39,369 nt of DNA from Fidelibacterota bacterium (GTDB taxonomy: Bacteria > Fidelibacterota > Marinisomatia > Marinisomatales > TCS56), in NCBI GenBank assembly GCA_013203115.1, contig JABMQW010000077.1, positions 1 to 39,369 on the forward strand, written 5' to 3'. This document shows positions 3,322-39,369 of this stretch, in pieces. The position numbers and the translations under genes are program-made. The notes beneath the pieces are model-generated. The model was not told the DNA's origin, did not search any database, and saw only the letters and a program-made list of their open reading frames with translations. How positions within the stretch are numbered: position 1 is the first letter of the stretch; the number at the start of each line of letters is the position of its first letter.

Positions 3322-3360
3322 TTTGGCAATCCAATAAACAATATGGTAAAGGTTAGACCT

Positions 3361-6300
3361 ATGTCGTTTAAAAAACTGAACCTTTTTTTGGTTGGCAGGC
3401 AAGATTTATTCTGGCTGATGCAAATTTTGACAATCTTGTTCCTATTTGACTCAATAATAGCCCAGACGCCTCTGGATATGCGTGGTGATGCTCTAAATCG
3501 TCGGTTAGGGTTGATGGATGGTAACCTGGTTAAAACGCTTTTTAAAAATTATGGTGAGGTAACTGACTATCCCAATGAACCATCTGCTAATTGGCCGTCT
3601 TTGGGTAAACATTATTGCGATGGCGTAGCCCTGATTGTATCGGCCGAAGTCCTGAATGGCGATAGTGTTTTAATTCATCCGATGGAAACCCAATACCGTG
3701 AGTTTGTGGATACATCACCTGAAGGTATACTATGGGGGTTTGAACCGCGCCCTTACTGGTTTAATATGGACACGCGTGAGAATAAAGTACCGGCCATGAG
3801 CAACGAACCGCTAAGCTGGCCAACGCACTGGTTGGATAAACCGGATTCCTGGAATGGGTACTGGAACGGCTATTTTGGAAAGGGTATTTTCAATGCCGAT
3901 CTGGAGACAATGTTCGTTTTTGATGATGATCCCGATAAGGAACCGAATCTGGAAATGAATTATTATTGTGATGAGACTGATTCAACCCGCGGTGGTTTAG
4001 GCTTGTGGGTAAAAGCGCGTGGTTTTCAGTGGAGTCAAGTTTTGGCGGAAGACTGTATTTTCTGGCTGTATAATATCACCAATGAATCGACCCATGATTA
4101 TGATTCGACTTTTTATGCTCAATATATTGATTGGGGTATTGGTGGTGTAGAAGACGGCGCTGATGATATCGGTCAATATGATGTGGATCTGGATATTGCC
4201 TACGCCTATGATACCGATGGAAAAGGTACACCGGGTAACTGGTCCCCGGTCGGGTATGCCGGATATGCCTTTCTGGAAAGCCCGGGAATTGAATCCGATG
4301 ACGAGGATAATGATAATGATGGTATCATCGATGAAAAAAGATACAGTACCGGACCAGGTGTATATCTATCAGATTATCCCTATGGTTTTGAAGGTGCTCT
4401 ATGGGACAACTTCACCGATTATTATTTACAAACACCGCGACCCCACTGGTCAGAAGATGAAGATTGCGACTGGATCCCTTACACGGATCTGAATGCCAAT
4501 GGTGTTTGGGATGAGGATGAACCATTGAATGATGATGTGGGGGAAGATGGGGTAAGTCCTTATGACTTGCATTATGAGGGTCCGGATGATGGAGAGGGCG
4601 ATGGGTTCCCTACCGATGGCGAACCCAATTACAACGAAACTGACCCTGATGAATCCGATCAAATCGGTTTAACGGGCTTTAACGTATTCGCTACCCACTA
4701 TTACGAATTGAAAAATGATGAAGAAAACTGGGATGTTTTTCGACGGGCATTACCTCCCCACGATCAAATTCTTAAACCTAATAACCTGGCCATGTTTTTT
4801 TCCTCCGGCAAATTTCCTTTGTTAGTCGGGCAAACCGAACGTTATTCCATGGCGCTGTTGTTTGGCGAAGATCTGGATGATCTGATAAAGAATAAACGTA
4901 CTGTACAGCAAATCTATAATGCGGATTACCGCTTTTCCAAACCACCGCTTAAACCGACTGTGAAAGTACTGCCCGGTGATGGCAAGGTAACTTTGATTTG
5001 GGATGATATAGCCGAAAAATCATTCGATCCATTTTTACAGGAATACGATTTTGAAGGCTACATAATTTATAAAAGTACCGAACCACAGTTTCTGGAAAAT
5101 AAAGTGATCACCGATTCCTATGGTAACCTGACCTTTAGAAAACCAGTGGCTCAATTTGATTTGAGAGACGGAAAGTCAGGACCTCATCCGGTAGATATAT
5201 ATGGAATTAAATATAATTTGGGAAAAGATACCGGGCTTAAACATAGCTGGATAGATACAGACGTGAACAATGGTCAAACATATTATTATGCAGTCGTTTC
5301 TTATGATTATGGGTTGGTTGATTATGGACCTACCAGTGTTGAGGGGATTCCTCCTTCCGAATGTTCATCGATCATTAAAACCAATTCAGTAGGTGAAGTC
5401 ACATTTATGGATATTAATACCGGAAGAGGCACACCAAGACCAGCGGCGGCCGGCTACATTGAACCCCTGTTGATCGAGGATTTACAGCATATTGGGCCGG
5501 GCACCGGTACGGTAGCGGTACAGATAATTGAAGATTACTCCGTCCGGTCGGGGCAAACCACCTATGAAATGAACTTTCTTGAGGATACAAAATTCCATGA
5601 CAGTACCGAGCCTTATTTTGTGATACGAGATGTGGTCAAAGATTCGATTATAATTGATTCAATACTGATTAACCTCGAAGGCCAGGAAAGTCCGAATTTT
5701 GATGGAATGGTAGTGTCTGTTTATAACGATACTACTGTTGACTGGGATGAGGAGCAAAGTCATTGGATAGTCGGTTCTTCGGACTATGGGGTTAAGGTTC
5801 GCATGACTGAGGAGTATGATATACTAATCTTAAACGAATTATGGAATTTGCGGATGCCGGCGGATTTTGAAATAACCTTTATTGATACAGATTCTGTCGA
5901 TATCTATTCCAAAGATTTTTATGGATTGCATTCCCTACCGACAAACGTGGTGGTATTCAATAAAACAGATTCAGTTACTTTGGAGCACGCATTGGTTGAT
6001 AACGACGAAGATGGGAAATACAGTAATGGTGATGATATTGTTATAATTATTCCGGATAATGATTTTGTACTTGGTACACATCCCAGCTGGACCATACGGT
6101 TTGACAGTAAAATGAGAATTGATACTGTTTTGCAGGACGGTATCCCGGTACTCGATACTACCTGGCTGACGGTTGATCCGCCTGAAGCCGGCGAAACTTA
6201 TCTGGTGAAAACCAAGAAGCCATTTCGAGCTACGGTATATACGATGGTTTTTGATACCAGTGATATGATAATTGATACCAGTTGGGTTGTCAAGGATCAA

Positions 6301-6678
6301 GGCGATGTATTCCGATTCACAGTTCAGGGACCGGATTCAAGTATAACCCTGGCTAAAAATGAATTGAAAGATATCTGTGTCGTACCAAACCCCTACATAG
6401 TTACCGTATCTTGGGAACCACGGCATTATTATAAATTTGGCCGTGGTGAGCGGCGTCTGCATTTCTTCCATCTTCCGCAAGACTGTACCATACGTATCTA
6501 TAATCTGCGGGGACATTTGGTTGATACGATCGAACATCATAGCACCGCATCGGATGGAATGGAACCCTGGGATTTGCTTTCAAAAGATGGACAGGAAATC
6601 GCCTACGGAATTTATCTCTACCATGTGGATGCGCCTGGCATTGGTGAAATAACCGGGAAGTTTGCGGTCATAAAATGA
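3361..6678 (+). CDS. Large secreted protein with Asp-rich repeats, FN3-like domain and T9SS-like C-terminus
   Basis: An upstream in-frame ATG exists at 3343, but the ATG at 3361 has AAGG 8 bases before it and puts the signal sequence (FWLMQILTILFLF...IIAQ) nearer the N-terminus, giving 1105 residues. From about 47 to 511 there is a module also found in the protein at 10892-13633 (FKNY.E.TDYPNEPSANWPS, GKHYCDGVA, HPMETQYREFVD, STRGGLGL, GEDLDDL). Inside it are Asp-rich calcium-type stretches such as DDEDNDNDGIIDE and DLNANGVWDEDEP. An FN3-like segment follows at about 527-650 (KVTLIWDDIAEKSFDP, FEGYIIYKSTEP). The C-terminus (VVPNPYIV, IRIYNLRGHLVDTIE, AYGIYLYHV, GKFAVIK) is a divergent type-A sorting domain. 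No catalytic motif was recognised; a surface structural or binding role is an inference. Its stop overlaps the next gene's start (ATGA). Confidence 0.85.
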   Translation: MSFKKLNLFLVGRQDLFWLMQILTILFLFDSIIAQTPLDMRGDALNRRLGLMDGNLVKTLFKNYGEVTDYPNEPSANWPSLGKHYCDGVALIVSAEVLNGDSVLIHPMETQYREFVDTSPEGILWGFEPRPYWFNMDTRENKVPAMSNEPLSWPTHWLDKPDSWNGYWNGYFGKGIFNADLETMFVFDDDPDKEPNLEMNYYCDETDSTRGGLGLWVKARGFQWSQVLAEDCIFWLYNITNESTHDYDSTFYAQYIDWGIGGVEDGADDIGQYDVDLDIAYAYDTDGKGTPGNWSPVGYAGYAFLESPGIESDDEDNDNDGIIDEKRYSTGPGVYLSDYPYGFEGALWDNFTDYYLQTPRPHWSEDEDCDWIPYTDLNANGVWDEDEPLNDDVGEDGVSPYDLHYEGPDDGEGDGFPTDGEPNYNETDPDESDQIGLTGFNVFATHYYELKNDEENWDVFRRALPPHDQILKPNNLAMFFSSGKFPLLVGQTERYSMALLFGEDLDDLIKNKRTVQQIYNADYRFSKPPLKPTVKVLPGDGKVTLIWDDIAEKSFDPFLQEYDFEGYIIYKSTEPQFLENKVITDSYGNLTFRKPVAQFDLRDGKSGPHPVDIYGIKYNLGKDTGLKHSWIDTDVNNGQTYYYAVVSYDYGLVDYGPTSVEGIPPSECSSIIKTNSVGEVTFMDINTGRGTPRPAAAGYIEPLLIEDLQHIGPGTGTVAVQIIEDYSVRSGQTTYEMNFLEDTKFHDSTEPYFVIRDVVKDSIIIDSILINLEGQESPNFDGMVVSVYNDTTVDWDEEQSHWIVGSSDYGVKVRMTEEYDILILNELWNLRMPADFEITFIDTDSVDIYSKDFYGLHSLPTNVVVFNKTDSVTLEHALVDNDEDGKYSNGDDIVIIIPDNDFVLGTHPSWTIRFDSKMRIDTVLQDGIPVLDTTWLTVDPPEAGETYLVKTKKPFRATVYTMVFDTSDMIIDTSWVVKDQGDVFRFTVQGPDSSITLAKNELKDICVVPNPYIVTVSWEPRHYYKFGRGERRLHFFHLPQDCTIRIYNLRGHLVDTIEHHSTASDGMEPWDLLSKDGQEIAYGIYLYHVDAPGIGEITGKFAVIK

Positions 6679-15016: not shown

Positions 15017-15017
15017 G

Positions 15018-16721: not shown

Positions 16722-16724
16722 GTA

Positions 16725-19589: not shown

Positions 19590-19620
19590 TTGGAAAAGAA
19601 TTACCCTTAAGGATCAATTG

Positions 19621-20508: not shown

Positions 20509-20521
20509 AGAGGTTCATTAA

Positions 20522-21751: not shown

Positions 21752-21766
21752 CTGGAATAAAAAGTT

Positions 21767-22825: not shown

Positions 22826-22840
22826 CTAAGATAATCTTAG
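22826..22840. promoter_or_regulatory. Perfect 15-base palindrome in the intergenic gap, possible operator
   Basis: CTAAGATAATCTTAG is a perfect inverted repeat (7-base arms, 1-base centre) placed immediately after the ATPase stop codon, in the only sizeable gap of the sugar locus (22826-22926). No T-run follows, so it is not a good intrinsic terminator. A second weak inverted repeat, CGATG-CTCT-CATCG, lies at about 22892-22910. A regulator-binding site controlling the downstream GH63-like and GH32 genes is possible. No regulator gene is present in the window to support it. Confidence 0.35.
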
Positions 22841-22926
22841 TCTGTTGGCAGATATTTAGGCTAAGGGTGTTGCTCGGTTAATCAAATGAATTCCTCGATG
22901 CTCTCATCGGACGAGTTGTAAATCCA

Positions 22927-24297: not shown

Positions 24298-24303
24298 TAT
24301 CAA

Positions 24304-25689: not shown

Positions 25690-25734
25690 TATTTCAAAAG
25701 AACCAACCTGCCGGCCAAAAAATAGGGAATGCAG

Positions 25735-26496
25735 ATGGGTAGGGTACTTAAAAAATATGAGAATGAATTGCACAAGCGTTGTATTGGTGTTTTTAAAGCA
25801 AATATTCTTGAAGGACGGTTAGGTTTAGCGAATCTAAAGTTCCACCCTAATGGAAATGTAAAACCATTTTATGGACTGACCTGTATCGCCTGGGTCGATA
25901 AAAGATCGGATTTATATCAAAAATTAGGTGATTTACAAAAAATATTCAGAAAACTGTTTAATAAAGTGCAGTTGGGGCATATTTTCAGTTTTTTGGCTCC
26001 CGAATCTTTTCACATGACAATCTGTGATATCGAGGCCGGTTCACTTCCTCTTTCAGCCCAGCATATTGTGACCCAGATCGAAAAAGTAAAGCGTGCTTTT
26101 AAGCAGATTAAAACACCATTAATAGTGACTTCCCAAGTCCAAGGTATTGGTTTGGATATCGGTATTACAGCCCTCGTAAGATTCGATTATGAAACTGAAC
26201 TCGTAAAAATTCTTGATATGGAGTGCTTGATTAAACAGTCTGCCGGCGTCGATGTCAGAAATTTTACCGGACATATCAACCTGGCTTATTTTGTTCAACA
26301 GCCCGGAACAAATATTAAACTGATCAAGGAAATACTGCTTCCATATGATAATAGGGCTATCAGTGATTTTTCTTTTGCCAAGTTTGATCTCGTCTATTTT
26401 ACTGACATGAATACTTATCAGCCGATATTGACACTCGACTTGTGGGATGGTAAGCTGATACACCATCAGAATGAACAAGAAGGATTTAGTTATTAA
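25735..26496 (+). CDS. 2H phosphoesterase superfamily-like protein (DUF1868-like)
   Basis: 253 residues from ATG 25735, which has AGGGA 6 bases upstream; ATG 25729 would add two residues. No signal peptide. The sequence has the two-lobed pattern of 2H (LigT-like) phosphoesterases: VKPFYGLTCIAWVD, then PESFHMTICDIEAG with an H-x-T motif at His93, and FTGHINLAYFV with His180. In the usual H-x-T/S motif the second position reads HIT; here it is H-I-N, so one active-site hydroxyl is replaced by an amide. Known 2H enzymes open cyclic phosphates or 2'-5' linkages in RNA or nucleotide substrates; DUF1868 members are poorly characterised. Why one sits in a glycoside operon is unknown; processing of a cyclic phosphate sugar ester is conceivable but speculative. 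Confidence 0.65.
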   Translation: MGRVLKKYENELHKRCIGVFKANILEGRLGLANLKFHPNGNVKPFYGLTCIAWVDKRSDLYQKLGDLQKIFRKLFNKVQLGHIFSFLAPESFHMTICDIEAGSLPLSAQHIVTQIEKVKRAFKQIKTPLIVTSQVQGIGLDIGITALVRFDYETELVKILDMECLIKQSAGVDVRNFTGHINLAYFVQQPGTNIKLIKEILLPYDNRAISDFSFAKFDLVYFTDMNTYQPILTLDLWDGKLIHHQNEQEGFSY

Positions 26497-26529
26497 TTTG
26501 ACACAGGCTGTGAAGTCAATGATATTCCA

Positions 26530-28101
26530 ATGGCAAATAAGGGAACCTCGACAATGGATTTGATCACTAAATATATGAAAGTAAATATCCCCACCAAATC
26601 AATGATCGTTGTTGATTTAAGCCGGGATAGGATGGATGGACAAATTGCGGCCTGCATTCTGCAAGGGATCGTCAACCGGGACGATGAAAATAAAATCTAT
26701 GTTACCAATACTTATTGTTATGATAATAAACGGGGTGGAGCGACTCAGATTCAGATTGCCGAACGGTATATCGAAACGCTTTTTGCCGATATTCCGGTGG
26801 AACGACTAACTCCGGTGGTTGACCAGGATTGGCCTGGGTTCAAAGCCCTGCTGGAACGCTACACGGACCGGGTTAAGGGTCTGATTATTTGGGATCCCAA
26901 ATTGGAACAGGCTACTATAGAAGCTGCTACCACTGTAGCGGCCCAAACCGATGGATTGGTGGTTTCGCCGGAATTGGCTGCAGCTCTAAGCGATATGAAT
27001 TTCAAAGTCATCCAGGATTTCCGGGAGTTGGCGTTTGAAAATAATTCGCAGTGTCTGGATTGGTTATTGAAAAATTGGTTCGCCGACGCTTGTAAAGAAT
27101 TTGCTTTCACCTGGTCTCATATGACCACAGACGACAGGAGTTGGGGTGCGGCCAATAAGGATTACGTGGTGGCAATGAAATTGTTTACTTACTACCTTGA
27201 TATTTCCGATCCGGAAGAAGCTGCGTTATATGCAAAAGTATTACGGAATTATCCCCAGGGTACCCCGATTTTGGGTTGGACCGATGAACGCTGGGCAGAC
27301 GCCTTGTTTGCCCGATTGGGATATTTTATGGTTCCGTATATTTCAGTTGAAAATCTCACTGTTCATTCTTCCTTTCCATCGACAACAGGACAACAATCCG
27401 AACCCAAACCGGCAGAGGTTGTCTCAAATGGCGTTTATATCAGCATGTTTGTAGCCGACGGAGATAATCTGCTGCATTCCATGGTTTACGAACCGGATAT
27501 AATTATGACCAGTGCTTCATATAATAAAATATCCATGACCTGGATTATTAATCCGGGGCTGGTCGATCTGTCGCCCCGCCTATTTGACTGGTATTTCAAC
27601 AATCTTGGCAATCAGGAAATGGGAGCCATGCTCAGCGACGGTCACCCGCACAGTGACAGGTATCTTGCCTTTAAACGATATTGTAATTTCTGTGATTATT
27701 ATTTAGAAAAATCCGGAATGTTCACCCTCAAGCAAATGGAGGAATCTGAGGCAGTTGGCTGGAATGTCCAACCATATGTTATGAACAGTGGGTATGCCGG
27801 AACCTGTGCGAAGGGGATCGGAGAGTATGAATATCATATGGACGATGAAACATTTCATATTGGAAGTATTAAGCTTAATAATGCTCAAACGATAAGAAAA
27901 TTAGTCCAGGCTGCACATCGGCCGGAGCCTTTGTTTTTAAATATATTTTGTGGCACTGCTGTGGAAGATTTGCCCCAAAAAGTGAATGATATTGCCAATG
28001 AATTACTGCAATCGGAAAATGCGGATGATGTTCGCTATTTCTTTCTGCGAAGTATGGATCTGGCTGCTACTTACCGGGTTTGGAAAGGTTTGCCAGTTTA
28101 A
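26530..28101 (+). CDS. GxGYxYP-like protein (putative glycoside hydrolase related)
   Basis: 523 residues from ATG 26530; ATG 26554 is an equally possible start. No signal peptide. The N-terminal half (MIVVDLSRDRMDGQIAACIL, QGIVNRDDENKIYV, WTDERWADALFARLGYFMVP) and a central VADGDNLLHSM motif (Asp310, Asp312, Asn313) followed by SMTWIINPGLVDLSPRLFDW resemble the GxGYxYP family, which has been suggested to contain glycoside hydrolases. The name-giving G-x-G-Y-x-Y-P motif is not seen at the expected place; AMLSDGHPHSDRY stands there instead. It is the last gene of the sugar locus before a 188-base gap. A role in metabolism of the imported glycoside is inferred from position; the reaction is unknown. 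Confidence 0.65.
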   Translation: MANKGTSTMDLITKYMKVNIPTKSMIVVDLSRDRMDGQIAACILQGIVNRDDENKIYVTNTYCYDNKRGGATQIQIAERYIETLFADIPVERLTPVVDQDWPGFKALLERYTDRVKGLIIWDPKLEQATIEAATTVAAQTDGLVVSPELAAALSDMNFKVIQDFRELAFENNSQCLDWLLKNWFADACKEFAFTWSHMTTDDRSWGAANKDYVVAMKLFTYYLDISDPEEAALYAKVLRNYPQGTPILGWTDERWADALFARLGYFMVPYISVENLTVHSSFPSTTGQQSEPKPAEVVSNGVYISMFVADGDNLLHSMVYEPDIIMTSASYNKISMTWIINPGLVDLSPRLFDWYFNNLGNQEMGAMLSDGHPHSDRYLAFKRYCNFCDYYLEKSGMFTLKQMEESEAVGWNVQPYVMNSGYAGTCAKGIGEYEYHMDDETFHIGSIKLNNAQTIRKLVQAAHRPEPLFLNIFCGTAVEDLPQKVNDIANELLQSENADDVRYFFLRSMDLAATYRVWKGLPV

Positions 28102-28972: not shown

Positions 28973-31900
28973 TTGAAAATATATCGGATTACCGCCAAAT
29001 TGGTTATGCTGATTCTGGCAGGGACCAGTATGCCCGTGGGTCAGGATGTTGATACAACTCAGATCGAGCCACCGGTGCACCTGATTCAGTCGCCCTTTAT
29101 TGTCGATGCTTTTCCCGCGCTGCCGCTTCCAATCGGGTTGATCGGGGATACTTTAATTAAACCGATTGGACTATTTGATCTGCCGTTTACAAAGACCGAA
29201 ACCAGGGTCGAGATTGCTGAAGATTGGAGCACTATCACGATCACGGAAATATCCGACGGTAATATATACAAGCTACCATTCACTGCCAGCCTGGATTGGT
29301 ATGTTCAAGCCATGCTGCAGCGCAATCGGCGGGTCAAATTTATCGAAACCATGCAGGGTGTTACCAAACCAGCCAGTCAACAGCCCGGTAAGCGGCGGTC
29401 CGGAAAATCGATTGAAGTGGTCGGTGTAGATGTAGGCGACTTTGGGCGCGTTTCCCTGCGGGTACGGGGAAATGTCAATATTTCTGGTAAAATGGTCTTT
29501 CAGGATCAGCAGTTGATTCATTCAAATATCAATGAAGCCCAGAATACCCACATCGAATTTGACCAAAAACAGAATCTGAATATTGAAGGGAAAATCGGCG
29601 ACCGGATCACGGTGTTGATGGATCAGGACTCCGAACGGGACTTTGACTGGGAAAATAATATACGGATTTCTTATAAAGGTGAAGAGGATGAAATTCTGCA
29701 GAGTGTGGAAGCCGGGAATATCTCCCTGTCTTTACCGGCTACTCAATTTGTGACTTTTTCGGGAAAAAATAAAGGACTGTTCGGTTTAAAAGCCACTTCA
29801 AAATTGGGACCGGTAGATATTACTACCATTGCCTCAATCGAACAGACCCGCAAGGAAAAGCAAAAATTCGAAGGCTCCAACGAATCCACTACCCAGCAGA
29901 TACAGGATTATAATTTTCTCAAGTACCGCTATTTCTTTATTCACAAATGGTATCGAAATGGTTATAATACTTTCGGAATAAACTCATTTTATCCACTGGA
30001 TAATGAAGGTCGACACTATCTGAATCTGGTAGTGGTAAAAGATTTTGAATTATATAAATCAGTAAGCGGTAAAACTCCGGGTAATATTCAAGGCGTGGCT
30101 TATGTTAATCCTGATAGTATCGAAAGTTATTCTGAAGATTTGGAGGAAACTAACTTTATTCGCCTGGAACGGGATGAAGAATATTATATCAATGAAGACT
30201 TGGGCTATATACGAATGCGGTCTACGGTTTCTGATGCCATACTTGGGTGTACATTTAATATTATTGAGGTTGTCAGCGGGGATACGATAAAATCTATTGG
30301 TACCGTACCAGTGGAGGGTGATTCAATCGGATTGCAATTACAACTTATTAAGCCAAGATCTCACTTCTCCCCGGGAAAGCCTTCTTGGGATCTGATGTTT
30401 AAAAACGTATATTTTCTGGGTACGGCTAATATCAATACAGAAGGTTTTGCAGTGCGGATTATGGACGATCGCGCACAACCGGCCAGTGAGCGCGATGCTG
30501 ACGGAACTTCGTATCTTACCCATTTTGGACTGGATTTAAAAAATGAAAGCGGTGTTTTAGAGCCGGATGAAATAATTGATATTGCTAATCCAAATTTAAT
30601 TAATCTAACTTACGGGGAATTGATTTTTCCTAACTATCTGCCTTTTGTACATTCCGATAGTTTGGAAGGTGGCTCCAATGTTGATGCTCTGAGTGGACAA
30701 CTCGGTTCTGGTATTATGTACTTATCAACAATTGATAGTGATATTCGCAAGGACAAGCGTTTCATTATCGAAGTCGATTATACTAACCAGGCCAGTAATA
30801 TCAGGTTGGGTTTTATGGTGGTAGAAGGCAGTGAAGAAGTCAAGCTGAACGGACTGACGCTCCAGCGTGGAATTGATTACCAGATCGATTATTTTGGCGG
30901 AACGCTGGTATTTCTGAATGAAGATGCTCTGGCACCTAATGCCAACCTGGAAGTTCTTTATGAAAAGCACGAATTGGTTTCATTCGATAAAAAGACGATT
31001 GTTGGTACCCGGGCTCAGATGGACCTGGGGCAGAATTCATTCATAGGTGCTACAGCCCTGTATTATAACCAGTCCGTATTGAATGAAAAAATCGAGGTCG
31101 GATATGAGCCGACCCGTAATTTCATTTGGGATTTGAATGGTCGCTATCAGGCTAACTTGGAAGGTGTTACTCGTTTTCTGGACCGTCTTCCCCTGATTGA
31201 AACGGAAAAAATAACCACATTTTCCATGGAAGGCGAATTTGCCCAGGTACTGCCCAATCCAAATCCGATCAATAATAAAGCAACCGGTGATCCCAGTGGT
31301 GTTGCTTATATAGATGATTTTGAGGGCGCCAAGCGGACCACCGCCCCGCAGATATTGCAACGTTTCTGGAAACCGTCTTCTGCTCCAATGGATCCAATCA
31401 CTGAAGTTCCTTTAAAGCAGGCCAATCGGGCCAAGCTGTTCTGGTTTACTCCTTATGTGCCGGTCAGTACAAAAAATATCTGGCCCAACCAGTCCACTTC
31501 AACCCGGGCACAAAATGAGACCACCAATATTCTCTGGCTGGATTTTTCAAAGTATGAATACCAGTCGGATACAACCAATGATTCGGTCTGGGCCGGCATT
31601 ATCAGCTCCTTTTACAGTGGCGATCACGACCAGACCCGCAGTAAATTTTTTGAGATCTGGCTGCGCGGCGCGGAAGGCCGGCTGACAGTCGACCTGGGGC
31701 GGATCAGTGAGGACTGGAACGGCAACGGCGTTCTGGATACTGAAGACCAGCCGGAAGCGGGTTTTACCCTGGGAAATGGTTTCCTTGAAGATAATGAGGA
31801 CGTAGGTCTGGACGGCTGCCCCGATGAATTTGAGGACGGATGGGGCGGTTGCCTGGACTCCCTGACCTTCCTGGAATATTATAATGCCGGTGATACGATC

Positions 31901-34900
31901 CACATCAATCACCGGGTGTTCGATACTGACGATCCCAACGGTGATAACTGGGCCAAGTATACTGGTGGCGGTATCGGTAAATCCAACGGTCCCGATCAGG
32001 TTAACGGTACCGAAGGCAACCGGCGCCAGGAAGGGGGTATTTACCCAGACACGGAAGATCTCGACGGTTCTGGCTTCCTGGACCGGGTCAATGATTATTT
32101 CACCAAATCTTTCGAGCTCAGCAAAACATCAGGGGACGTCGAATATGTGGCCGGCGAAACTGTGAAGGATGGTGGCCTCACCGGCTGGAGGTTGTACCGG
32201 ATTCCCCTGAGCCATTTTACTCGAGCCAAGGCCGAAGGTATCATTGACTGGAATGATATCCGGAATATACGTATGACGATCACTGAAGTTGAATCAAATG
32301 CCACCTTACAGATCGCTAAAATTGAATTAGTTGGTAATGAATGGATCGAGCTGGGCGTCAGCAGCGATACCACCGGTTTTGTAAAGGATGACAGTGTTTT
32401 TGCCATTACAATCATTAATACAGAAGATAATGCGACAGAATATGAACCCCCTAAGGGTGTAGAGGGTGAATATGATCGCATCAACCAAATTCGTTCTAAG
32501 GAACAATCGCTGGTTCTTAAATTTAATAATTTAAAGGGCTATCACCAGGGTGCAGCGGAAAAAACACTCTTCGAATTGGGTGGTAAACGTGCTCAGAGTT
32601 ATCTGACCTATGACCGGATGAAAATGTTTATCTACGGCAATAGTTCCAGAATTTGGGAAGATGATACGGATGTGGAATTTTTCATGCGTTTCGGAAAAGG
32701 AGATGCTTATTATGAAATCACACAACCAGTATATGAAGGTTGGGATGAATCTAACGGTCGAAACTCAATTGATCTGGACCTGGAATGGCTGACGGCATTG
32801 AAGCTGGCAAATGTTTCTAATGTAAATAAAATCAGGCCAACCGATACCTTGAAAGTGTGGGATAATAAACGGGAGTACATTTTTCGAGATGCCAATCGTG
32901 ATCCGACTGGTAAAAGGATAGTAATACAAGGTACTCCGGCCATTTCTCGAATCCAGTATATCAGGGTTGGTATCAGGAATACATCGGCCGATTCAATTTC
33001 AGGTGAAGTGTGGCTTGATGAATTACGCATGAGCGGCGTAAAAAAAGATCGTGGCGTTGCCATGCGTATTCAAGGTAAGCTGAACCTGGCGGACATTGGT
33101 AACATTGCCATAGCATACAGCCGCAGGGATGCCGATTTTCACATCCTGCAGGAACGTTTGGGCTCAAATAGCACCAGCGAAGATTTCAGGATAAATGCCA
33201 GCCTGACATTGAGTAAGTTTTTACCCCACTCATGGGGTTTGAAAATTCCGTTTAGTATGGCCTATTCTAATAGTATCAAGCAACCAAAATATCACCCACA
33301 GAATGAGGATATATTAGTTACCAGCGGTAATGTAGCCGATTCAATTTTAACGATCAATAACTCTGTCAATTTTAGTACTTCGGTGTCAAAAACTACTAAA
33401 TCAGAACGTAAACTGATTAAATATACTCTAGATCGGATCAATACTAATTTCAGCGCTAAACGCAGTGTTTCTTCCAGTTTTCAGATTGCTGAAAACCTGA
33501 ATGAAAATTATTCTGGCAAGCTATCCTACTCCCTGCCATTCGGAAAGGATAATTTTATATCACCATTCAAATGGTTGGGAAAAGTACCATTGATAGGTCC
33601 GAAACTGGGTGGTTTTCATTTATATTATTTGCCAGTCACGATTAATGCCAATATGAGTTTCAAAGAATCGCTTTCACAAAAAACACCACGGATTGGAAAG
33701 AAAACCGAAAATTATAATCTTGGTTTAACACGTAATTACGGACTCGATTATAAACTGACCGAAAATCTGAAATCGATAAAATATAGTCGTAATATTGCAA
33801 GTGATATGGATGATTATCGCGGTTATGTCTGGATGGCTGTCAGGGATCTTGATCCCGGGATTGTTACTAACTCGACTGAAAGCATTTCGGCGGCCTATAC
33901 ACCAGCGGTATTGGAGTGGCTGAGACCTAATTTCAGTTATTCTGCGCAATATCGCTGGAGCAAACCAATCGGCAGTAATATTGACGGCGCTAATATCAGC
34001 ACTGGCTTGAATTTTTCTTCCAGTATGAATTTAAACCCCACTAAGTTATTTGAGTTGGTGTATAAACCAACTACCAAAGCCACTGGACGCAGACCACGCG
34101 GTAACCAGAATAATAATCAGCAGCAAGAGGAGAAAAAACTCCCGCAAAAAGACAACCCGATTTTGAAAAAAATTCATTCCATTGTCAAGAAAATAAATCC
34201 GGTCAATATCAGATATACATCCAATTTAGGCCGCAATGGGAACGGGATTCAGGGAACAGTGCCGGCTGGTTATAAATTTGGCTGGTTGCCGAATCATGGT
34301 TTACCCCATTCACTCCAAGTAGGCTCCAATACAGGGGATTGGAATCATAAACAGGATATATCACTAAGCTCCGGAATAAAGTTAACCAGCTCAATATCGA
34401 CTACCTTTAATTACTCTCAGAACATATCATCCAATATAGGCGGTTCCGGTGGTGAAACGCGCACTCTTAAACGGGATATGTTACCGTATGGTGAACAACT
34501 GGAAGGCAGGATACCTTTTCCTGGTTGGAATCTGCGCTGGAGCGGTTTGCAAAAATTACCGCTCTTGAATAAAATTGCCCGGTCGGTTTCATTGGAACAT
34601 AGTTTCCGAGGTTCTGAAAGCCGTAACTGGCGTATGGAAACCGCCATACCTGACCCTATGCCCTTGTTTAATGTAAATTCATTTATTGACGAATATGGCG
34701 ATAACCAACGATCCTCCAGAATTGATGCCAGTTTTTCCCCCCTACTCAGCCTCACAATGCAGTTAAATAAAGGTATTTCGATGACTACCCGTTTGAACTA
34801 TTCCCGATCAATGGATCAACAGGAAAATGGTCAAACATATAAAGTCGATAAATCTTTATCCAGCAGTGCAAATTACAGCCATAAAGGTGGCCTAACCATT

Positions 34901-35185
34901 CCATTGCCGTTCTTTGATAATGTTGATGTACAGAATAATGTTAATTTCACCTTAAATTTTGACCTTAACGAAAATAGCACCAAGACCAGGAACAACATTG
35001 ACGTCAAATTCACAAAGCCTAAAGAGATTTCCAGTTGGAAAGTAGGGCTGCGAATTTCTTATTCCTTTACTACACGGGTCAGCGGCGGAATCATCTACGA
35101 GTATCGTGAAAGTGACAATTTTACCACCGGCAAAAAGATCGATCGCGACTTTGGTTTCGATGTTAAAATTGCTATTAGCGGATAA
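28973..35185 (+). CDS. sprA: SprA, type IX secretion outer-membrane translocon
   Basis: 2070 residues from a TTG at 28973; the in-frame stop at 28931 allows no ATG or GTG start before it, and KIYRITAKLVMLILAGTSMP is a sensible signal peptide, so TTG is likely. SprA hallmarks: GRVSLRVRGNVNISGKM and QNLNIEGKIGDRITVLMDQD with EDEILQSVEAGNISLSLPAT (about 158-260), the AYIDDFEGAKR motif at about 777-787, Asp-rich NGNGVLDTED...EDVGLDG (about 910-945) and a C-terminal barrel ending GFDVKIAISG. A basic, Gln-rich insert (GNQNNNQQQEEKK) lies at about 1705-1720. SprA forms the giant pore through which T9SS cargo leaves the periplasm, here presumably the sorting-domain proteins encoded in this window. 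It is somewhat shorter than the ~2400 residues usual in Flavobacteria. Other core T9SS genes (gldKLMN) are not in the window. Confidence 0.95.
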   Translation: MKIYRITAKLVMLILAGTSMPVGQDVDTTQIEPPVHLIQSPFIVDAFPALPLPIGLIGDTLIKPIGLFDLPFTKTETRVEIAEDWSTITITEISDGNIYKLPFTASLDWYVQAMLQRNRRVKFIETMQGVTKPASQQPGKRRSGKSIEVVGVDVGDFGRVSLRVRGNVNISGKMVFQDQQLIHSNINEAQNTHIEFDQKQNLNIEGKIGDRITVLMDQDSERDFDWENNIRISYKGEEDEILQSVEAGNISLSLPATQFVTFSGKNKGLFGLKATSKLGPVDITTIASIEQTRKEKQKFEGSNESTTQQIQDYNFLKYRYFFIHKWYRNGYNTFGINSFYPLDNEGRHYLNLVVVKDFELYKSVSGKTPGNIQGVAYVNPDSIESYSEDLEETNFIRLERDEEYYINEDLGYIRMRSTVSDAILGCTFNIIEVVSGDTIKSIGTVPVEGDSIGLQLQLIKPRSHFSPGKPSWDLMFKNVYFLGTANINTEGFAVRIMDDRAQPASERDADGTSYLTHFGLDLKNESGVLEPDEIIDIANPNLINLTYGELIFPNYLPFVHSDSLEGGSNVDALSGQLGSGIMYLSTIDSDIRKDKRFIIEVDYTNQASNIRLGFMVVEGSEEVKLNGLTLQRGIDYQIDYFGGTLVFLNEDALAPNANLEVLYEKHELVSFDKKTIVGTRAQMDLGQNSFIGATALYYNQSVLNEKIEVGYEPTRNFIWDLNGRYQANLEGVTRFLDRLPLIETEKITTFSMEGEFAQVLPNPNPINNKATGDPSGVAYIDDFEGAKRTTAPQILQRFWKPSSAPMDPITEVPLKQANRAKLFWFTPYVPVSTKNIWPNQSTSTRAQNETTNILWLDFSKYEYQSDTTNDSVWAGIISSFYSGDHDQTRSKFFEIWLRGAEGRLTVDLGRISEDWNGNGVLDTEDQPEAGFTLGNGFLEDNEDVGLDGCPDEFEDGWGGCLDSLTFLEYYNAGDTIHINHRVFDTDDPNGDNWAKYTGGGIGKSNGPDQVNGTEGNRRQEGGIYPDTEDLDGSGFLDRVNDYFTKSFELSKTSGDVEYVAGETVKDGGLTGWRLYRIPLSHFTRAKAEGIIDWNDIRNIRMTITEVESNATLQIAKIELVGNEWIELGVSSDTTGFVKDDSVFAITIINTEDNATEYEPPKGVEGEYDRINQIRSKEQSLVLKFNNLKGYHQGAAEKTLFELGGKRAQSYLTYDRMKMFIYGNSSRIWEDDTDVEFFMRFGKGDAYYEITQPVYEGWDESNGRNSIDLDLEWLTALKLANVSNVNKIRPTDTLKVWDNKREYIFRDANRDPTGKRIVIQGTPAISRIQYIRVGIRNTSADSISGEVWLDELRMSGVKKDRGVAMRIQGKLNLADIGNIAIAYSRRDADFHILQERLGSNSTSEDFRINASLTLSKFLPHSWGLKIPFSMAYSNSIKQPKYHPQNEDILVTSGNVADSILTINNSVNFSTSVSKTTKSERKLIKYTLDRINTNFSAKRSVSSSFQIAENLNENYSGKLSYSLPFGKDNFISPFKWLGKVPLIGPKLGGFHLYYLPVTINANMSFKESLSQKTPRIGKKTENYNLGLTRNYGLDYKLTENLKSIKYSRNIASDMDDYRGYVWMAVRDLDPGIVTNSTESISAAYTPAVLEWLRPNFSYSAQYRWSKPIGSNIDGANISTGLNFSSSMNLNPTKLFELVYKPTTKATGRRPRGNQNNNQQQEEKKLPQKDNPILKKIHSIVKKINPVNIRYTSNLGRNGNGIQGTVPAGYKFGWLPNHGLPHSLQVGSNTGDWNHKQDISLSSGIKLTSSISTTFNYSQNISSNIGGSGGETRTLKRDMLPYGEQLEGRIPFPGWNLRWSGLQKLPLLNKIARSVSLEHSFRGSESRNWRMETAIPDPMPLFNVNSFIDEYGDNQRSSRIDASFSPLLSLTMQLNKGISMTTRLNYSRSMDQQENGQTYKVDKSLSSSANYSHKGGLTIPLPFFDNVDVQNNVNFTLNFDLNENSTKTRNNIDVKFTKPKEISSWKVGLRISYSFTTRVSGGIIYEYRESDNFTTGKKIDRDFGFDVKIAISG

Positions 35186-35340
35186 TAGACATGTTGACTG
35201 AGCGTACACAACCATTCATCCCATATATGAAAAACAGGTCTGTAAAGGCACAGATGGAATGTGCATCGGACGAGATAGCGCAACAAAGTTGCTGTGGACC
35301 ACTCAGACCCCGGGTAAAGGTTACGGTTGGAACCAGATCT

Positions 35341-36282
35341 GTGGTCGCGTGGGGCGCCATAATTCGAAATAATCTGATATACATGGTTTCATTTGTCCTG
35401 ATTATTTTTAACGGTTGCCAGTCAACGGTTCCTGAATTCAATTCTGATAGTGCCTTTGGTTTTCTGGAACAGCAATGCGATTTTGGCCCGCGGAATCCAG
35501 GTTCGACCGGTTATTATCAATGCCGTGATTTCCTGATCGGAGAATTGCAGGCCAGCGCCGATACGGTCATTCAACAGCAGTTCCAATTGACTGATCCAAT
35601 CAGTGGCGAAGAATACCAACTGACTAACCTGATTGGTCGCTTTAATCCATCGGCCACTAAACGGTTATTGCTCGGCGCGCACTGGGATACGCGCCCTTGG
35701 GCAGACCGGGACCCCGATCCTGCTCGACGCATGGAACCCATCCTGGGCGCCAATGACGGAGCCAGCGGGGTAGCGGTTTTGCTCGAATTGGTCCGGCTCA
35801 TGAAATTGATCCCTCCGCCCATCGGCGTGGAAATCGTTTTTTTCGATGGAGAAGATATGGGTCTGAGCGGCGACCCACGGTCATTTGCCCGAGGTTCGCT
35901 GGCTTTTGCCAGTGATTTGCCAATTCCGAGGCCTGATGAGGCTATAATTATCGATATGATCGGCGATGCCGATCTATCCATACCGGTGGAACGCTATTCA
36001 ATGCAGCAGAATCCGACTTTGGTACGGGAGTTATGGAAGCTGGCCAGGGAGTTGGATTTACCGGCTTTTGAGAATCGTGTGGCAAACGCGATTTTCGATG
36101 ACCATATTCCCCTGTGGGAACAAGCCCAGATTCCGGCGGTGGATCTGATCGATTTTTTCTATCCCAACCGCTATGCGAATTTCTGGCATACCCACCAGGA
36201 TTTACCCCAAAATTGCTCCCCCGTTAGCCTGGGGCAGGTGGGAACATTGTTAACGTATTATATTTATAAGGATTCTAATTAA
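35341..36282 (+). CDS. M28 metallopeptidase-fold lipoprotein, glutaminyl-peptide cyclotransferase-like
   Basis: The frame is open from ATG 35191, but that start would place the hydrophobic signal at residues 53-75; GTG 35341 gives a normal lipoprotein signal (IIRNNLIYMVSFVLIIFNGC). The mature part matches the M28/glutaminyl-cyclase fold: LLGAHWDTRPWADRD, GANDGASGVAVLLELVRL, IEIVFFDGED-like VEIVFFDGEDMG, IIIDMIGD, FDDHIPLWEQAQIPAVDLID and FWHTHQD. Metal ligands (Asp in GANDG, Glu in DGED, His in FWHTH) and the DDHIP Asp correspond to those of animal and bacterial type-II glutaminyl cyclases; the Trp equivalent to human W207 is not obvious. Such enzymes convert N-terminal Gln to pyroglutamate. 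It begins right after sprA. An aminopeptidase activity remains the alternative. Confidence 0.85.
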   Translation: MVAWGAIIRNNLIYMVSFVLIIFNGCQSTVPEFNSDSAFGFLEQQCDFGPRNPGSTGYYQCRDFLIGELQASADTVIQQQFQLTDPISGEEYQLTNLIGRFNPSATKRLLLGAHWDTRPWADRDPDPARRMEPILGANDGASGVAVLLELVRLMKLIPPPIGVEIVFFDGEDMGLSGDPRSFARGSLAFASDLPIPRPDEAIIIDMIGDADLSIPVERYSMQQNPTLVRELWKLARELDLPAFENRVANAIFDDHIPLWEQAQIPAVDLIDFFYPNRYANFWHTHQDLPQNCSPVSLGQVGTLLTYYIYKDSN

Positions 36283-36300: not shown

Positions 36301-37167
36301 ATGCGAAAAATAAATATTCATAACCCAATCAACCTCACCAGTCTTATTACCCTGGTGCTGGTTTTAATATTTGTGTTGAACTTTGGCTGTGAAGATCCTT
36401 TACGTGCGCCGGACCCCGCTGGTGATCCCATAACGGAAATTCAGTTCAGTTATAATAAATGGACCGGGGATATTTACCTGGCGGCAAAAGTAGCTCCCAG
36501 ACTGAACGGGGTAGTTCTTGATACGTTATACGCGGTTATTTTTGATTTTGCGGATTCTACTATCATGGCGGATACTATCGCAATAACGGATGACGGACAG
36601 GCTGGCGATATTCTAAGTGATGATGGTGTTTTCGCAACGGTTATCCCCGCCGATTCCACCACCTTGTCCACCACGCTTGATTCGATTACATCTACCGTGA
36701 TCGGGATGATAGTCGAAGCTGTTTACGGTACCCAGGTTACGAATGCCTCCCATATTTTTGATCTGAGCAACTACCACCCGGAAATAATTGCCGTATCCAT
36801 GCCCACGGCCATGTATACTCCCTGTGCCGGTGACCCTTTGGGTTACGATCTGGACACACTGGTGGTCACGGTAATCGATTCCAACGGTCTGGATGATATT
36901 CAGACCTGTTATCTGAATTTTCAGAGACCTGATGGAACCTATTCCATTGGAAGCCCGATCGCTCTCTTTGATGATGGTTATGAGGAGGATGGCTTATTAA
37001 AGTGGGATGAGTTGGCCAATGACGGCAAGTACAGCCGCCTGATCCTGATTGATGGGAACAGCCAGGTGGGTCTGTATCGGTCACATTATTTTGTGCGTGA
37101 TTTCAATGGACTGGTCTCAGACGACTTCATGGTCGAACTGGCAGTTATTGACACTTGTGGATCATAG
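36301..37167 (+). CDS. Lipoprotein with two Ig-like segments, function unknown
   Basis: 288 residues with a lipoprotein signal (LITLVLVLIFVLNFGC, Cys30). Two beta-rich segments follow. The first contains IAITDDGQAGDILSDDGVFA, a motif seen in choice-of-anchor-type Ig-like domains of FCB surface proteins; the second has a similar FDDGYEEDGLLKWDELANDG then YSRLI, suggesting internal duplication. No catalytic residues are recognised and no sorting domain is present. It lies 18 bases after the cyclase-like gene and 1 base before the propeller gene, so it is part of the sprA operon. A structural or assembly role at the outer membrane in the secretion pathway is inferred from position alone. Confidence 0.78.
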   Translation: MRKINIHNPINLTSLITLVLVLIFVLNFGCEDPLRAPDPAGDPITEIQFSYNKWTGDIYLAAKVAPRLNGVVLDTLYAVIFDFADSTIMADTIAITDDGQAGDILSDDGVFATVIPADSTTLSTTLDSITSTVIGMIVEAVYGTQVTNASHIFDLSNYHPEIIAVSMPTAMYTPCAGDPLGYDLDTLVVTVIDSNGLDDIQTCYLNFQRPDGTYSIGSPIALFDDGYEEDGLLKWDELANDGKYSRLILIDGNSQVGLYRSHYFVRDFNGLVSDDFMVELAVIDTCGS

Positions 37168-37168
37168 G

Positions 37169-38812
37169 ATGAATAGGGAAATGCCTGGCCTGTACCGGAA
37201 TTTGAGAATGCTTTTGTCGCTGATTGTATTGATTGCTATGCTTCCGGGAGCGGATCTGATTCCCCGGTCTTTTTCGCTGAAAAAGTATTTGGATACTACC
37301 TCGGCATCCTTCCCGGACAGCACTTATTCCGGATTATCCAGCAATTCTATTGCGGTTATTCGCTTACAGAATGATACGCTGATTTGGCTGGGAACCGGCC
37401 AGGGCCTGTCCTGGTTGAATAATAGATTGCTGGATATTAATACCTATTACAGCAGTAACAATCTGGTTGACAACACCGCCACCGATCTGCTGCCAGCCGG
37501 GGGTGTATCGGCTCTGGCGATTGATGGAGAACGTATTGCGGCAGCTGTGGCCGGCCAGAAAAGTGGTGTAACAGCAGGAATGGGCATTGTAATTACCGAT
37601 TCCAGCCGTAACAACTGGCTGTATTATGAACAACCGATGGATGATTCTACCGAGATATTGGCAACCTGGTTTGACAGTCTTTCTTTCGCAGCCCTGCCGG
37701 TTACGGTGTCCGAACAGAATGTTACTTATGATGCATCCATCGCCGGTGATTATCTTTGGATCGCCTCCTGGGCTGGTGGTATTCGTCGCTACAGTTTCAG
37801 TGATAGTACCTGGGAACGGATTCCCCTGCCGGAGGACAATGATCCCCAATTGATTACTTGTCAGGACTCGCTCTATGAAAATGGTGTTTTGAAGGATTTC
37901 TATTTAAATCCCCGGGATCCTAAAGGGGGGGGTAATCATAACCATAAAGGATTCTCTGTCCTGGCCTATAATGATACGGTTTGGGTGGGAACTCCCAATG
38001 GGATCAACCGTGGTATTGTCGATACGGTTAACGGCTGTATCGACTGGCAACATTATTTTTTCCCTCAGGATGGTCTTCCCGGTAACTGGGTAATCAGCCT
38101 GGCCCGCCAGGACTGGAACGGCCAGCGGATTATCTGGGCCGCCACTTGGAGCGCCGATGATGAGAAACAGCTTGAACAGCGTGGACTCAGTTACACAATT
38201 GACGATGGCGAGACTTGGCATTCCACCTTGTTGGGTGAGAAAGCCTATAATGTAGTGGCCTATGATTCCTTAGTATTTGCGGCGACTGATAACGGTCTCT
38301 GGCGCTCGAACGATGGCCGGAACTGGGCACTCTACAAACCGGCCCGGCAGTCCCTGGCCGAAACAAATGGTATTACCTATCTGACTGACGAAATAACCAC
38401 CAATGTAGTGTATTCGGCCCTGTATGACCCCAATCGTTCCGAACTGTGGATCGGTACCAGTGATGGCCTGGCTATGACGGATGATTTAAACGGGCTTAAC
38501 TGGCGGATATTCCGCACCGACGTGTCCGGCGACTATGTTTATCCTAATCCTTTCTATAGCGGACATGCTGGCGAACGCTATGTGCGTTTTCATATTAATG
38601 TAAAAGAATCGTATGTCGTGAAGCTCGAGATCTTTGATTTTGCCATGCAAAAAGTCTACTCTCAGCAATTTGACCGGCGGGATAATGATATGGGAACCTA
38701 TAAATGGAATGGCCAGGACAATAACGGTAAAATGGTGGCTAACGGGACCTATTTTATCCGGTTGGATTATGATAACACCGACCATTGGTTCAAACTGATC
38801 GTGGTGAAATAA
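37169..38812 (+). CDS. Secreted beta-propeller protein with T9SS-type C-terminal domain
   Basis: 547 residues from ATG 37169, one base after the upstream stop; the same frame is open from 37049 but that part overlaps the preceding gene and is unlikely. Signal region LLSLIVLIAMLPGADL. Repeated two-component-regulator-propeller-like blades are visible: DTLIWLGTGQGLSWLNNRLL, DYLWIASWAGGIRRYSF, DTVWVGTPNGINRGIV, SLVFAATDNGLWRSNDGRNW and SELWIGTSDGLAMTDDLNG. The end (YVYPNPFYSGH, VKLEIFDFAMQKVYSQQF, MVANGTYFIRLDY, FKLIVVK) is a sorting-domain-like beta-sandwich. In Bacteroidetes, PorZ combines propellers with such a domain and belongs to the T9SS attachment complex; this protein is shorter, so it is a PorZ-like candidate rather than a proven orthologue. 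The stop overlaps a downstream ATG (TAATG). Confidence 0.82.
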   Translation: MNREMPGLYRNLRMLLSLIVLIAMLPGADLIPRSFSLKKYLDTTSASFPDSTYSGLSSNSIAVIRLQNDTLIWLGTGQGLSWLNNRLLDINTYYSSNNLVDNTATDLLPAGGVSALAIDGERIAAAVAGQKSGVTAGMGIVITDSSRNNWLYYEQPMDDSTEILATWFDSLSFAALPVTVSEQNVTYDASIAGDYLWIASWAGGIRRYSFSDSTWERIPLPEDNDPQLITCQDSLYENGVLKDFYLNPRDPKGGGNHNHKGFSVLAYNDTVWVGTPNGINRGIVDTVNGCIDWQHYFFPQDGLPGNWVISLARQDWNGQRIIWAATWSADDEKQLEQRGLSYTIDDGETWHSTLLGEKAYNVVAYDSLVFAATDNGLWRSNDGRNWALYKPARQSLAETNGITYLTDEITTNVVYSALYDPNRSELWIGTSDGLAMTDDLNGLNWRIFRTDVSGDYVYPNPFYSGHAGERYVRFHINVKESYVVKLEIFDFAMQKVYSQQFDRRDNDMGTYKWNGQDNNGKMVANGTYFIRLDYDNTDHWFKLIVVK

Positions 38813-38851
38813 TGAATTATCTGTCGCCATTCCGATCAAAACATCCAGCCT

Positions 38852-38859
38852 GGGGGAGG
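38852..38859 (+). promoter_or_regulatory. Strong Shine-Dalgarno site deciding a TTG start
   Basis: GGGGGAGG ends 9 bases before the in-frame TTG at 38869. This is by far the best ribosome-binding site in a window where most sites are weak. It favours TTG 38869 over the ATG at 38812 as the start of the last gene. Confidence 0.55.
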
Positions 38860-38868
38860 TTAATTGGA

Positions 38869-39369
38869 TTGAGTCGCAGATATCAGCATATTACCTGGCT
38901 GATTCCGTTCCTGATCTTCTGGTTGGTTACGGCTGGATCCGCCCAGGATTATGCCGGCTATGCCGGATCTTTTTTACGGATTGGCAGCAGCGCTCGTTCG
39001 GTTGCTATGGGCAGTGCTTTTACCGCCAAGCTGGACCGGGGATTTACCGCTTATCACAATCCCGCCGGTGTAGTATTCCTTGACCGTAAACAATTTACCG
39101 TATTGCACCATTTTTTATCCCTGCAGCGTCAGTATTTTGCCACCAGCTTCTCGACTGGTCTACCACCAACAGCGGGTCTTGGTATCGCCTGGATCAGTGC
39201 CGGGGTTAAAGATATTGATGGCCGCAGTTACTCCGGATTCCAGACCGAAACCCTGTCAACCAGTGAAGATGCCATCTTTGTTACCTTTGCTAATCAGATA
39301 GCGTCCGGACTGTCGGTGGGCCTGAATTTCAAGCTGCTTTTTCACCGCTTGCCAGTTGATGGGGAAAAC
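38869..39369 (+). CDS. PorV/PorQ-family outer-membrane protein, cut by the window end
   Basis: The frame is open to the last base, so the C-terminus is missing. TTG 38869 is chosen because of the strong GGGGGAGG site and because it gives a compact signal peptide (SRRYQHITWLIPFLIFWLVT ending AGSAQ); the ATG at 38812, overlapping the preceding stop, would add 19 residues. The mature start DYAGYAGSFLRIGSSARSVA followed by MGSAFTAKLDRGFTAYHNPAGVVFL is the PorV/PorQ family signature, followed by barrel strands (GLGIAWISAGVKDIDGR, IASGLSVGLNFKLLFHRLP). It is the second family member in the window and follows sprA, a cyclase-like gene and a propeller gene, so this one is the better candidate for the general PorV shuttle. 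Predicted mature N-terminus is Gln. Confidence 0.87.
   Translation, partial: MSRRYQHITWLIPFLIFWLVTAGSAQDYAGYAGSFLRIGSSARSVAMGSAFTAKLDRGFTAYHNPAGVVFLDRKQFTVLHHFLSLQRQYFATSFSTGLPPTAGLGIAWISAGVKDIDGRSYSGFQTETLSTSEDAIFVTFANQIASGLSVGLNFKLLFHRLPVDGEN

What the first reader, a model, noticed from the sequence alone, without database searches (positions are those of the whole stretch)
28973..36282. sprA next to a glutaminyl-cyclase-like lipoprotein, with predicted Gln N-termini on envelope proteins
Seen: the M28 protein has cyclase-type motifs (FFDGED, DDHIP, FWHT) and directly follows sprA. Predicted signal-peptidase sites leave Gln at the mature N-terminus of SprA (PVG|QD), the large secreted protein (IIA|QT) and the last PorV-family protein (GSA|QD). 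Known: in Bacteroidetes many signal peptidase I substrates have N-terminal pyroglutamate made by such a cyclase (the Q-rule). Inference: the Q-rule extends to this non-Bacteroidetes FCB lineage and the cyclase is wired to the T9SS locus.
Basis: partly seen in the sequence, partly recalled or inferred. Interest (0 to 1): 0.6.

Follow-up and report, generated by a model that had tools for sequence, protein, structure and literature searches.

The report
Glutamine-capping enzyme paired with secretion gene
An uncultured ocean bacterium of the Marinimicrobia group makes many exported proteins that are predicted to begin with glutamine, and carries the enzyme predicted to cap that glutamine directly behind the main gene of a protein-secretion machine, a pairing kept throughout its phylum although this capping system has been described as special to Bacteroidetes.

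Summary
The window is a contig of a Candidatus Neomarinimicrobiota (Marinimicrobia/SAR406) genome. The M28 protein behind sprA is a type II glutaminyl cyclase (QC) by sequence, residues and fold; its nearest solved structures are Bacteroidetes QCs, and it is predicted to be a lipoprotein.

The Q-rule inference is supported in silico. With a signal-peptide predictor blind to residue +1, Gln follows 23% of predicted sites in a 21% sample of the genome (background 5%; E. coli 5%; Bacteroidota controls 37-42%). A motif fit gives 0.34 here, 0.40-0.42 in relatives, 0.36-0.52 in Bacteroidota and 0.01 in E. coli. SprA and a PorZ-like protein keep Gln across relatives with diverged signal peptides.

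The 'wiring' is real as gene order: sprA is directly upstream of QC in 104 of 117 genomes of the phylum and in several other phyla, but in none of 28 QC-bearing genomes of a Bacteroidota-side sample. Functional dependence on T9SS is not supported: Aminicenantes have QC and Gln enrichment without SprA, T9SS cargo is not Gln-rich here, and only 3 of about 9 plausible SPI substrates in the window have Gln. Cyclase activity is untested.

The parts
28973..35185 (+). sprA/sov, T9SS outer-membrane translocon; predicted mature N-terminus Gln (MPVG|QDVDTT)
   Evidence: TIGR04189, 803.6 bits; N-terminus read from sequence; Gln at a permissible site in 24 of 34 Neomarinimicrobiota orthologues
35191..36282 (+). 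type II (animal-like) glutaminyl cyclase, predicted lipoprotein; start uncertain (35191 ATG or 35341 GTG)
   Evidence: PF04389; closest PDB chains 6qro, 3tc8, 3gux, 6qql at E 4e-54 to 1e-47; catalytic residues conserved; AlphaFold model pLDDT 91, best Foldseek matches are QCs or proteins reassigned as QCs
35407..35418 (+). lipobox FNG|C of the cyclase; Cys codon 35416-35418
   Evidence: Cys at the position of the lipobox Cys of most Neomarinimicrobiota QCs
35680..35706 (+). HWDTRPWAD: equivalents of PgQC H124, R128, P129, D132
   Evidence: H, R and P invariant in 80 of 80 relatives
35839..35856 (+). FFDGED: E = PgQC E182 (human E201), D = PgQC D183, the bacteroidal-QC zinc ligand in place of human E202
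   Evidence: E and D invariant in 80 of 80 relatives; the genome's other clear M28 protein has E-E
36097..36111 (+). DDHIP motif
   Evidence: Both Asp and the His invariant in alignment A1
36169..36192 (+). RYANFWHT: W = PgQC W298, H = PgQC H299 (zinc ligand), Y at PgQC F294
36301..37167 (+). predicted lipoprotein with a choice-of-anchor X domain, conserved next gene
   Evidence: NF041940; syntenic in most Neomarinimicrobiota loci
37049..38812 (+). PorZ-like surface protein with a T9SS-type C-terminal domain (true start probably near 37200)
   Evidence: Partial NF052228, FlgD_ig and CHU_C matches; Gln at a permissible +1 in 42 of 49 orthologues though not in this one
38785..39369 (+). PorV/PorQ-family outer-membrane protein, cut by window end; predicted mature N-terminus Gln (GSA|QDYAGYAG)
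   Evidence: NF033709 partial; N-terminus
3343..6678 (+). large secreted protein with predicted mature N-terminus Gln (SIIA|QTPLD)

Best explanation
The protein at 35191-36282 is a periplasmic, lipid-anchored type II glutaminyl cyclase, the only QC candidate found in this genome. Signal peptidase I cleaves many exported proteins before a Gln, including SprA and PorV-type barrels, and the cyclase converts that Gln to pyroglutamate, probably shielding the N-termini from aminopeptidases as shown for Porphyromonas gingivalis. It acts on exported proteins in general and not on T9SS cargo in particular. In Neomarinimicrobiota its gene is the second gene of an old sprA-QC operon. Shown here: enzyme family, residues, fold, Gln enrichment and conserved linkage. 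Inferred: catalysis, pyroglutamate in vivo, the protective role and co-transcription.
For: Family: nearest PDB chains are bacteroidal QCs at 4e-54 to 1e-47, animal QCs about 1e-14, first aminopeptidase 7.5e-7. Zinc ligands and the catalytic Glu kept in 80 of 80 relatives, including the Asp specific to bacteroidal QCs. Foldseek: TfQC TM 0.90, BtQC 0.89-0.91, PgQC 0.84-0.87. No type I QC (PF05096) over cut-off in 31 genomes. QC in 117 of 120 genomes of the phylum, including 0.8-1.0 Mb genomes. Gln at +1: own 14/60 (shuffle p 0.001), streamlined relative 11/33, E. coli 1/22, Prevotella 7/19, Persicobacter 11/26. Motif fit: own 0.34 (0.22-0.49), E. coli 0.01. Orthologues with Gln at a permissible site: PorZ-like 42/49, SprA 24/34, PorV 20/44. 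Linkage 104/117; gaps mostly -17 to +10 bases.
Against: No enzyme or proteomic data. The signal-peptide predictor is home-made, not SignalP, and the sample is 21% of an 88% complete genome. Against E. coli alone the own-genome excess is modest (Fisher p 0.044). Own Gln frequency is below the pooled Bacteroidota controls (14/60 versus 18/45, p 0.087). PgQC W193 is Phe or Tyr in nearly all Neomarinimicrobiota QCs and F294 varies. Eight relatives have His for W298.
Confidence: 0.82

Rival explanations
1. The cyclase is dedicated to the T9SS: it is coupled to SprA synthesis and needed for SprA or its partners, or for T9SS cargo.
For: sprA-QC adjacency in 104 of 117 genomes of the phylum and in KSB1, LCP-89, Zixibacteria and Calditrichota; overlapping or abutting genes; SprA, PorV-like and PorZ-like proteins often begin with Gln.
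Against: Aminicenantes have QC and Gln enrichment (10/38) but no SprA. QC and sprA are unlinked in Cloacimonadota, Ignavibacteria and all 28 QC-bearing genomes of the sample around G138. T9SS-domain proteins in the own sample have Gln in 1 of 7 versus 20 of 53 others. Gingipain mutants argue against Gln as a general T9SS signal (PMC5837995).
Confidence: 0.12
2. The M28 protein is an ordinary zinc aminopeptidase or exopeptidase.
For: M28 includes many aminopeptidases, and Pfam and NCBIfam do not separate the two. Bacteroidal QCs were first annotated as leucine aminopeptidases.
Against: Bacteroidal-QC Asp, Trp-His and Arg-Pro hallmarks kept; the best folds are QCs or proteins reassigned as QCs (PMC7948796). 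The genome's other clear M28 protein has the peptidase-type pattern instead.
Confidence: 0.05
3. Gln after signal peptides reflects only a signal-peptidase preference or a predictor artefact, with no cyclisation.
For: No mass-spectrometric data; a home-made predictor; Cloacimonadota have QC but no clear Gln enrichment (4/35).
Against: The predictor ignores +1, finds almost no Gln in E. coli and finds it in Bacteroidota; a QC is present in 117 of 120 genomes of the phylum.
Confidence: 0.06

Closest known systems
Bacteroidetes Q-rule with PgQC/TfQC/BtQC (PMC5837995, PMC7948796, PMC10653852)
   Same: Type II QC with the bacteroidal zinc-ligand Asp, predicted lipoprotein, Gln enriched after SPI sites
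   Different: Other phylum; QC gene directly behind sprA; PgQC W193 replaced by Phe or Tyr; Gln frequency perhaps somewhat lower; activity untested
Ignavibacterium album and Chloroherpeton (high Q-values outside Bacteroidetes in PMC5837995)
   Same: Gln after SPI sites outside Bacteroidetes
   Different: Reported as outliers without a pattern; Ignavibacteria QCs seen here are not next to sprA
Type II QCs of Fimbriiglobus ruber (7d1b) and an Acidobacteriales bacterium (7d18)
   Same: Type II QC outside Bacteroidota, similar fold
   Different: More distant (Foldseek TM 0.80-0.81)
SprA/Sov translocon of T9SS (TIGR04189)
   Same: SprA-family protein, with a PorU sortase and many CTD-type proteins elsewhere in the genome
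   Different: Next gene is QC; the GldM model TIGR03517 finds nothing in six genomes, though that search had no positive control

Membership tests
Type II (bacteroidal) glutaminyl cyclase | Zinc ligands D149, D183 (bacteroidal Asp), H299 | tested here: met
   D, D, H in window and in 80 of 80 relatives
Type II (bacteroidal) glutaminyl cyclase | Catalytic E182 and D218 | tested here: met
   Both present in window
Type II (bacteroidal) glutaminyl cyclase | W298 and R128/P129/D132 lining the access to the active site | tested here: met
   All four in window; some relatives vary at W298 and D132
Type II (bacteroidal) glutaminyl cyclase | W193 and F294 at the substrate pocket (secondary, conserved in characterised bacteroidal QCs) | tested here: not met
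   Phe and Tyr in the window; W193 is Phe or Tyr in 53 of 54 Neomarinimicrobiota QCs. Treated as secondary because both changes keep an aromatic residue; effect on activity not tested
Type II (bacteroidal) glutaminyl cyclase | Fold closer to QCs than to aminopeptidases | tested here: met
Type II (bacteroidal) glutaminyl cyclase | Lipoprotein anchor | tested here: met
   Lipobox Cys at the conserved position; prediction only
Type II (bacteroidal) glutaminyl cyclase | Gln-peptide cyclase activity | not testable with these tools
   Needs purified protein
Q-rule organism | Gln enriched at +1 of SPI substrates genome-wide | tested here: met
   14/60 blind, shuffle p 0.001; motif fit 0.34 against 0.048 background, on 21% of the genome
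Q-rule organism | Gln in a majority of SPI substrates (mean 71% in Bacteroidetes by SignalP) | tested here: inconclusive
   Blind and any-site counts give 23-35% here but also only 37-62% in Bacteroidota controls; SignalP not available
Q-rule organism | N-terminal pyroglutamate in proteins | not testable with these tools
   Needs mass spectrometry
SprA/Sov of T9SS | TIGR04189 above cut-off | tested here: met
   803.6 bits, cut-off 200
SprA/Sov of T9SS | Other T9SS parts in the genome | tested here: inconclusive
   PorU sortase 571.5 bits and over 30 CTD-type hits; GldM model negative, without a positive control

The most novel reading that the evidence does not exclude
sprA-QC is an ancient functional unit of the FCB group: the cyclase is made together with the T9SS translocon because SprA and its partners need pyroglutamate N-termini to be stable or to assemble, and the Bacteroidota later separated the two genes.
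Probability: 0.15. Interest if true: 0.75.

Novelty: new variant of a known kind. Interest (0 to 1): 0.55.

Why it matters
The Q-rule has been presented as exclusive to Bacteroidetes (PMC10653852). Here the same kind of enzyme and the same Gln signature appear across a widespread uncultured marine phylum and, with thinner data, in Aminicenantes and possibly Zixibacteria, so the trait looks older or more mobile than described. A sprA-QC pair fixed in a whole phylum reopens the question of a link between pyroglutamate and T9SS, which was set aside in earlier work. Aminicenantes, with QC and Gln enrichment but no SprA, offer the natural test. Searches that allow for pyroglutamate would also improve signal-peptide prediction and metaproteome matching in these lineages.

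Tried and rejected
NCBIfam and Pfam cannot tell cyclase from aminopeptidase here, so the decision rests on residues and fold. 'of' does not accept locus ids; genome handles were obtained through the handles scope instead. That the Gln excess marks T9SS cargo was considered and rejected: cargo has less Gln in the own sample (1/7 versus 20/53) and Aminicenantes lack SprA. That the adjacency is a local accident was rejected. L080, titled Actinomycetota, falls beside the Calditrichota locus L084 in the tree and is probably misbinned; it was not counted as evidence for another phylum. The literature search for sprA with glutaminyl cyclase was swamped by unrelated matches; searches for Marinimicrobia, SAR406 or Neomarinimicrobiota with T9SS or secretion systems found nothing relevant.

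Full report
What was checked. The window is contig 36 of a 2.64 Mb, 244-contig genome. Its nearest named relatives are Candidatus Neomarinimicrobiota, also called Marinimicrobia, SAR406 or, in the origin labels used by the tree tool, Fidelibacterota. sprA is real (TIGR04189, 803.6 bits) and the M28 ORF starts five bases after its stop codon.

The enzyme. By sequence the protein is closest to bacteroidal type II glutaminyl cyclases (6qro, 3tc8, 3gux, 6qql; E 4e-54 to 1e-47), then animal QCs (about 1e-14), and only then a peptidase (7.5e-7). Numbered on PgQC (PMC7948796), the zinc ligands D149, D183 and H299, the catalytic E182 and D218, and R128, P129, D132 and W298 are all present. D149, E182, D183, H299, R128 and P129 are invariant in 80 of 80 relatives. 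Asp at 183, where human QC has Glu, is the mark of bacteroidal QCs. The genome's other clear M28 protein (contig 98) has Glu there, Tyr for W298 and neither R nor P, so it looks like a peptidase. Two pocket residues differ: W193 is Phe here and Phe or Tyr in 53 of 54 relatives from the phylum, and F294 is Tyr. The AlphaFold model (pLDDT 91) is closest to Bacteroidetes and planctomycete QCs, then animal QCs. A lipobox Cys (codon 35416-35418) lies where most relatives have theirs. No type I QC passes the cut-off in 31 genomes.

The Q-rule test. Because a trained predictor could bias the answer, one was written that ignores residue +1, and the same code was run on controls. In 549 kb of this genome (21%), Gln is at +1 in 14 of 60 predicted SPI substrates, against 3.6 expected when the first 20 mature residues are shuffled (p 0.001). 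A streamlined relative gives 11/33, Aminicenantes 10/38, Zixibacteria 10/57, Cloacimonadota 4/35, Prevotella 7/19, Persicobacter 11/26 and E. coli 1/22. A motif fit that lets the cleavage site move gives 0.34 (bootstrap 0.22-0.49) here, 0.40 in the streamlined relative and 0.42 in the other Neomarinimicrobiota loci after removing the conserved locus genes, 0.36 and 0.52 in the Bacteroidota controls, 0.35 in Aminicenantes, 0.18 in Zixibacteria, 0.10 in Cloacimonadota and 0.01 in E. coli. Against E. coli alone the own-genome excess is only p 0.044, because that control is small. Further support comes from orthologues: across Neomarinimicrobiota loci with diverged signal peptides, Gln sits at a permissible site in 42 of 49 PorZ-like proteins, 24 of 34 SprA and 20 of 44 PorV-like proteins.

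The linkage. Loci fetched by QC alone have sprA directly upstream on the same strand in almost all Neomarinimicrobiota, usually followed by a lipoprotein, a PorZ-like protein and a PorV-family protein. In 120 genomes drawn from the phylum, 117 have QC and 118 have SprA. In 104 of the 117, sprA lies upstream on the same strand within 5 kb; in 11 of the other 13 the two lie on different contigs of fragmented assemblies, and in two no sprA place was listed. Most start-to-stop gaps lie between -17 and +10 bases, as in an operon. The pair also occurs in KSB1 (3 of 3), LCP-89 (1 of 1), Zixibacteria (2 of 2) and Calditrichota (2 of 3), but not in Ignavibacteria, Cloacimonadota or Aminicenantes; the last have no SprA. 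On a QC tree the linked and unlinked lineages are interleaved, which fits an old pair lost several times, though many inner branches are weak.

What it most likely does. The simplest account is a general periplasmic cyclase that caps Gln N-termini made by signal peptidase I, as shown for P. gingivalis, where the enzyme is essential and stabilises exported proteins (PMC5837995, PMC10653852). One copy kept even in 0.8-1.0 Mb genomes fits an important role. Dedication to T9SS is less likely: Aminicenantes show QC and Gln enrichment without SprA, T9SS-domain proteins in the own sample are not Gln-rich (1/7 versus 20/53), and Cloacimonadota have both genes without clear Gln enrichment. The last point is unexplained.

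What is new. Bochtler et al. (PMC5837995) describe the Q-rule as specific to Bacteroidetes, noting high values in Ignavibacterium album and Chloroherpeton; Marinimicrobia are not mentioned in its text. No paper in the searched library was found that reports the rule, T9SS or the sprA-QC pair in this phylum, but most subscription papers are not held. The parts are known kinds; the phylum and the fixed gene pair are the new element.

Limits. The predictor is home-made, gene starts are unverified, the genome-sample figures for groups other than Neomarinimicrobiota rest on one genome each, MAG names may hide misbinning, and no activity or mass-spectrometry evidence exists.

Noticed in passing
L086, L101, L107, L110, L112 (Aminicenantes and one Acidobacteriota-labelled MAG): Type II QC about 50% identical to the window's, no SprA in the genomes, and Gln enriched after signal peptides (10/38 in one genome; also the exported proteins next to QC in L086, L110 and L112): apparently a Q-rule without T9SS.
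   Followed up: partly
L209-L228, L090, L097 (Cloacimonadota): QC sits between a queF-like and a comEA-like gene, SprA is present elsewhere, yet there is no clear Gln enrichment (4/35). The role of QC there is unexplained.
   Followed up: partly
L063, L068, L071, L072, L074, L075, L076, L108: QCs in which the pocket Trp (PgQC W298) is His (HHT instead of WHT), while SprA and PorZ-like proteins there still tend to begin with Gln; activity may differ.
   Followed up: partly
own sample and L034-L109: The fitted -3 position of signal peptidase sites favours Leu, Ile and Val over Ala, unlike E. coli; possibly a different signal peptidase preference or a fit artefact.
   Followed up: no
L069, L073, L078: Some Neomarinimicrobiota QCs lack the lipobox Cys and appear to have an SPI site followed by Gln (e.g. 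VFG|QEIP), so the cyclase may itself be a substrate.
   Followed up: no
G000:C138:17141-20362: PorU-type T9SS sortase (571.5 bits) on another contig, with over 30 T9SS C-terminal-domain hits in the genome; GldM model negative.
   Followed up: partly
window 13697-28101: A sugar-uptake and glycoside-hydrolase block (ABC transporter genes, sucrose/fructan-type and trehalase-like enzymes, read from the translations only) lies upstream of the T9SS locus.
   Followed up: no
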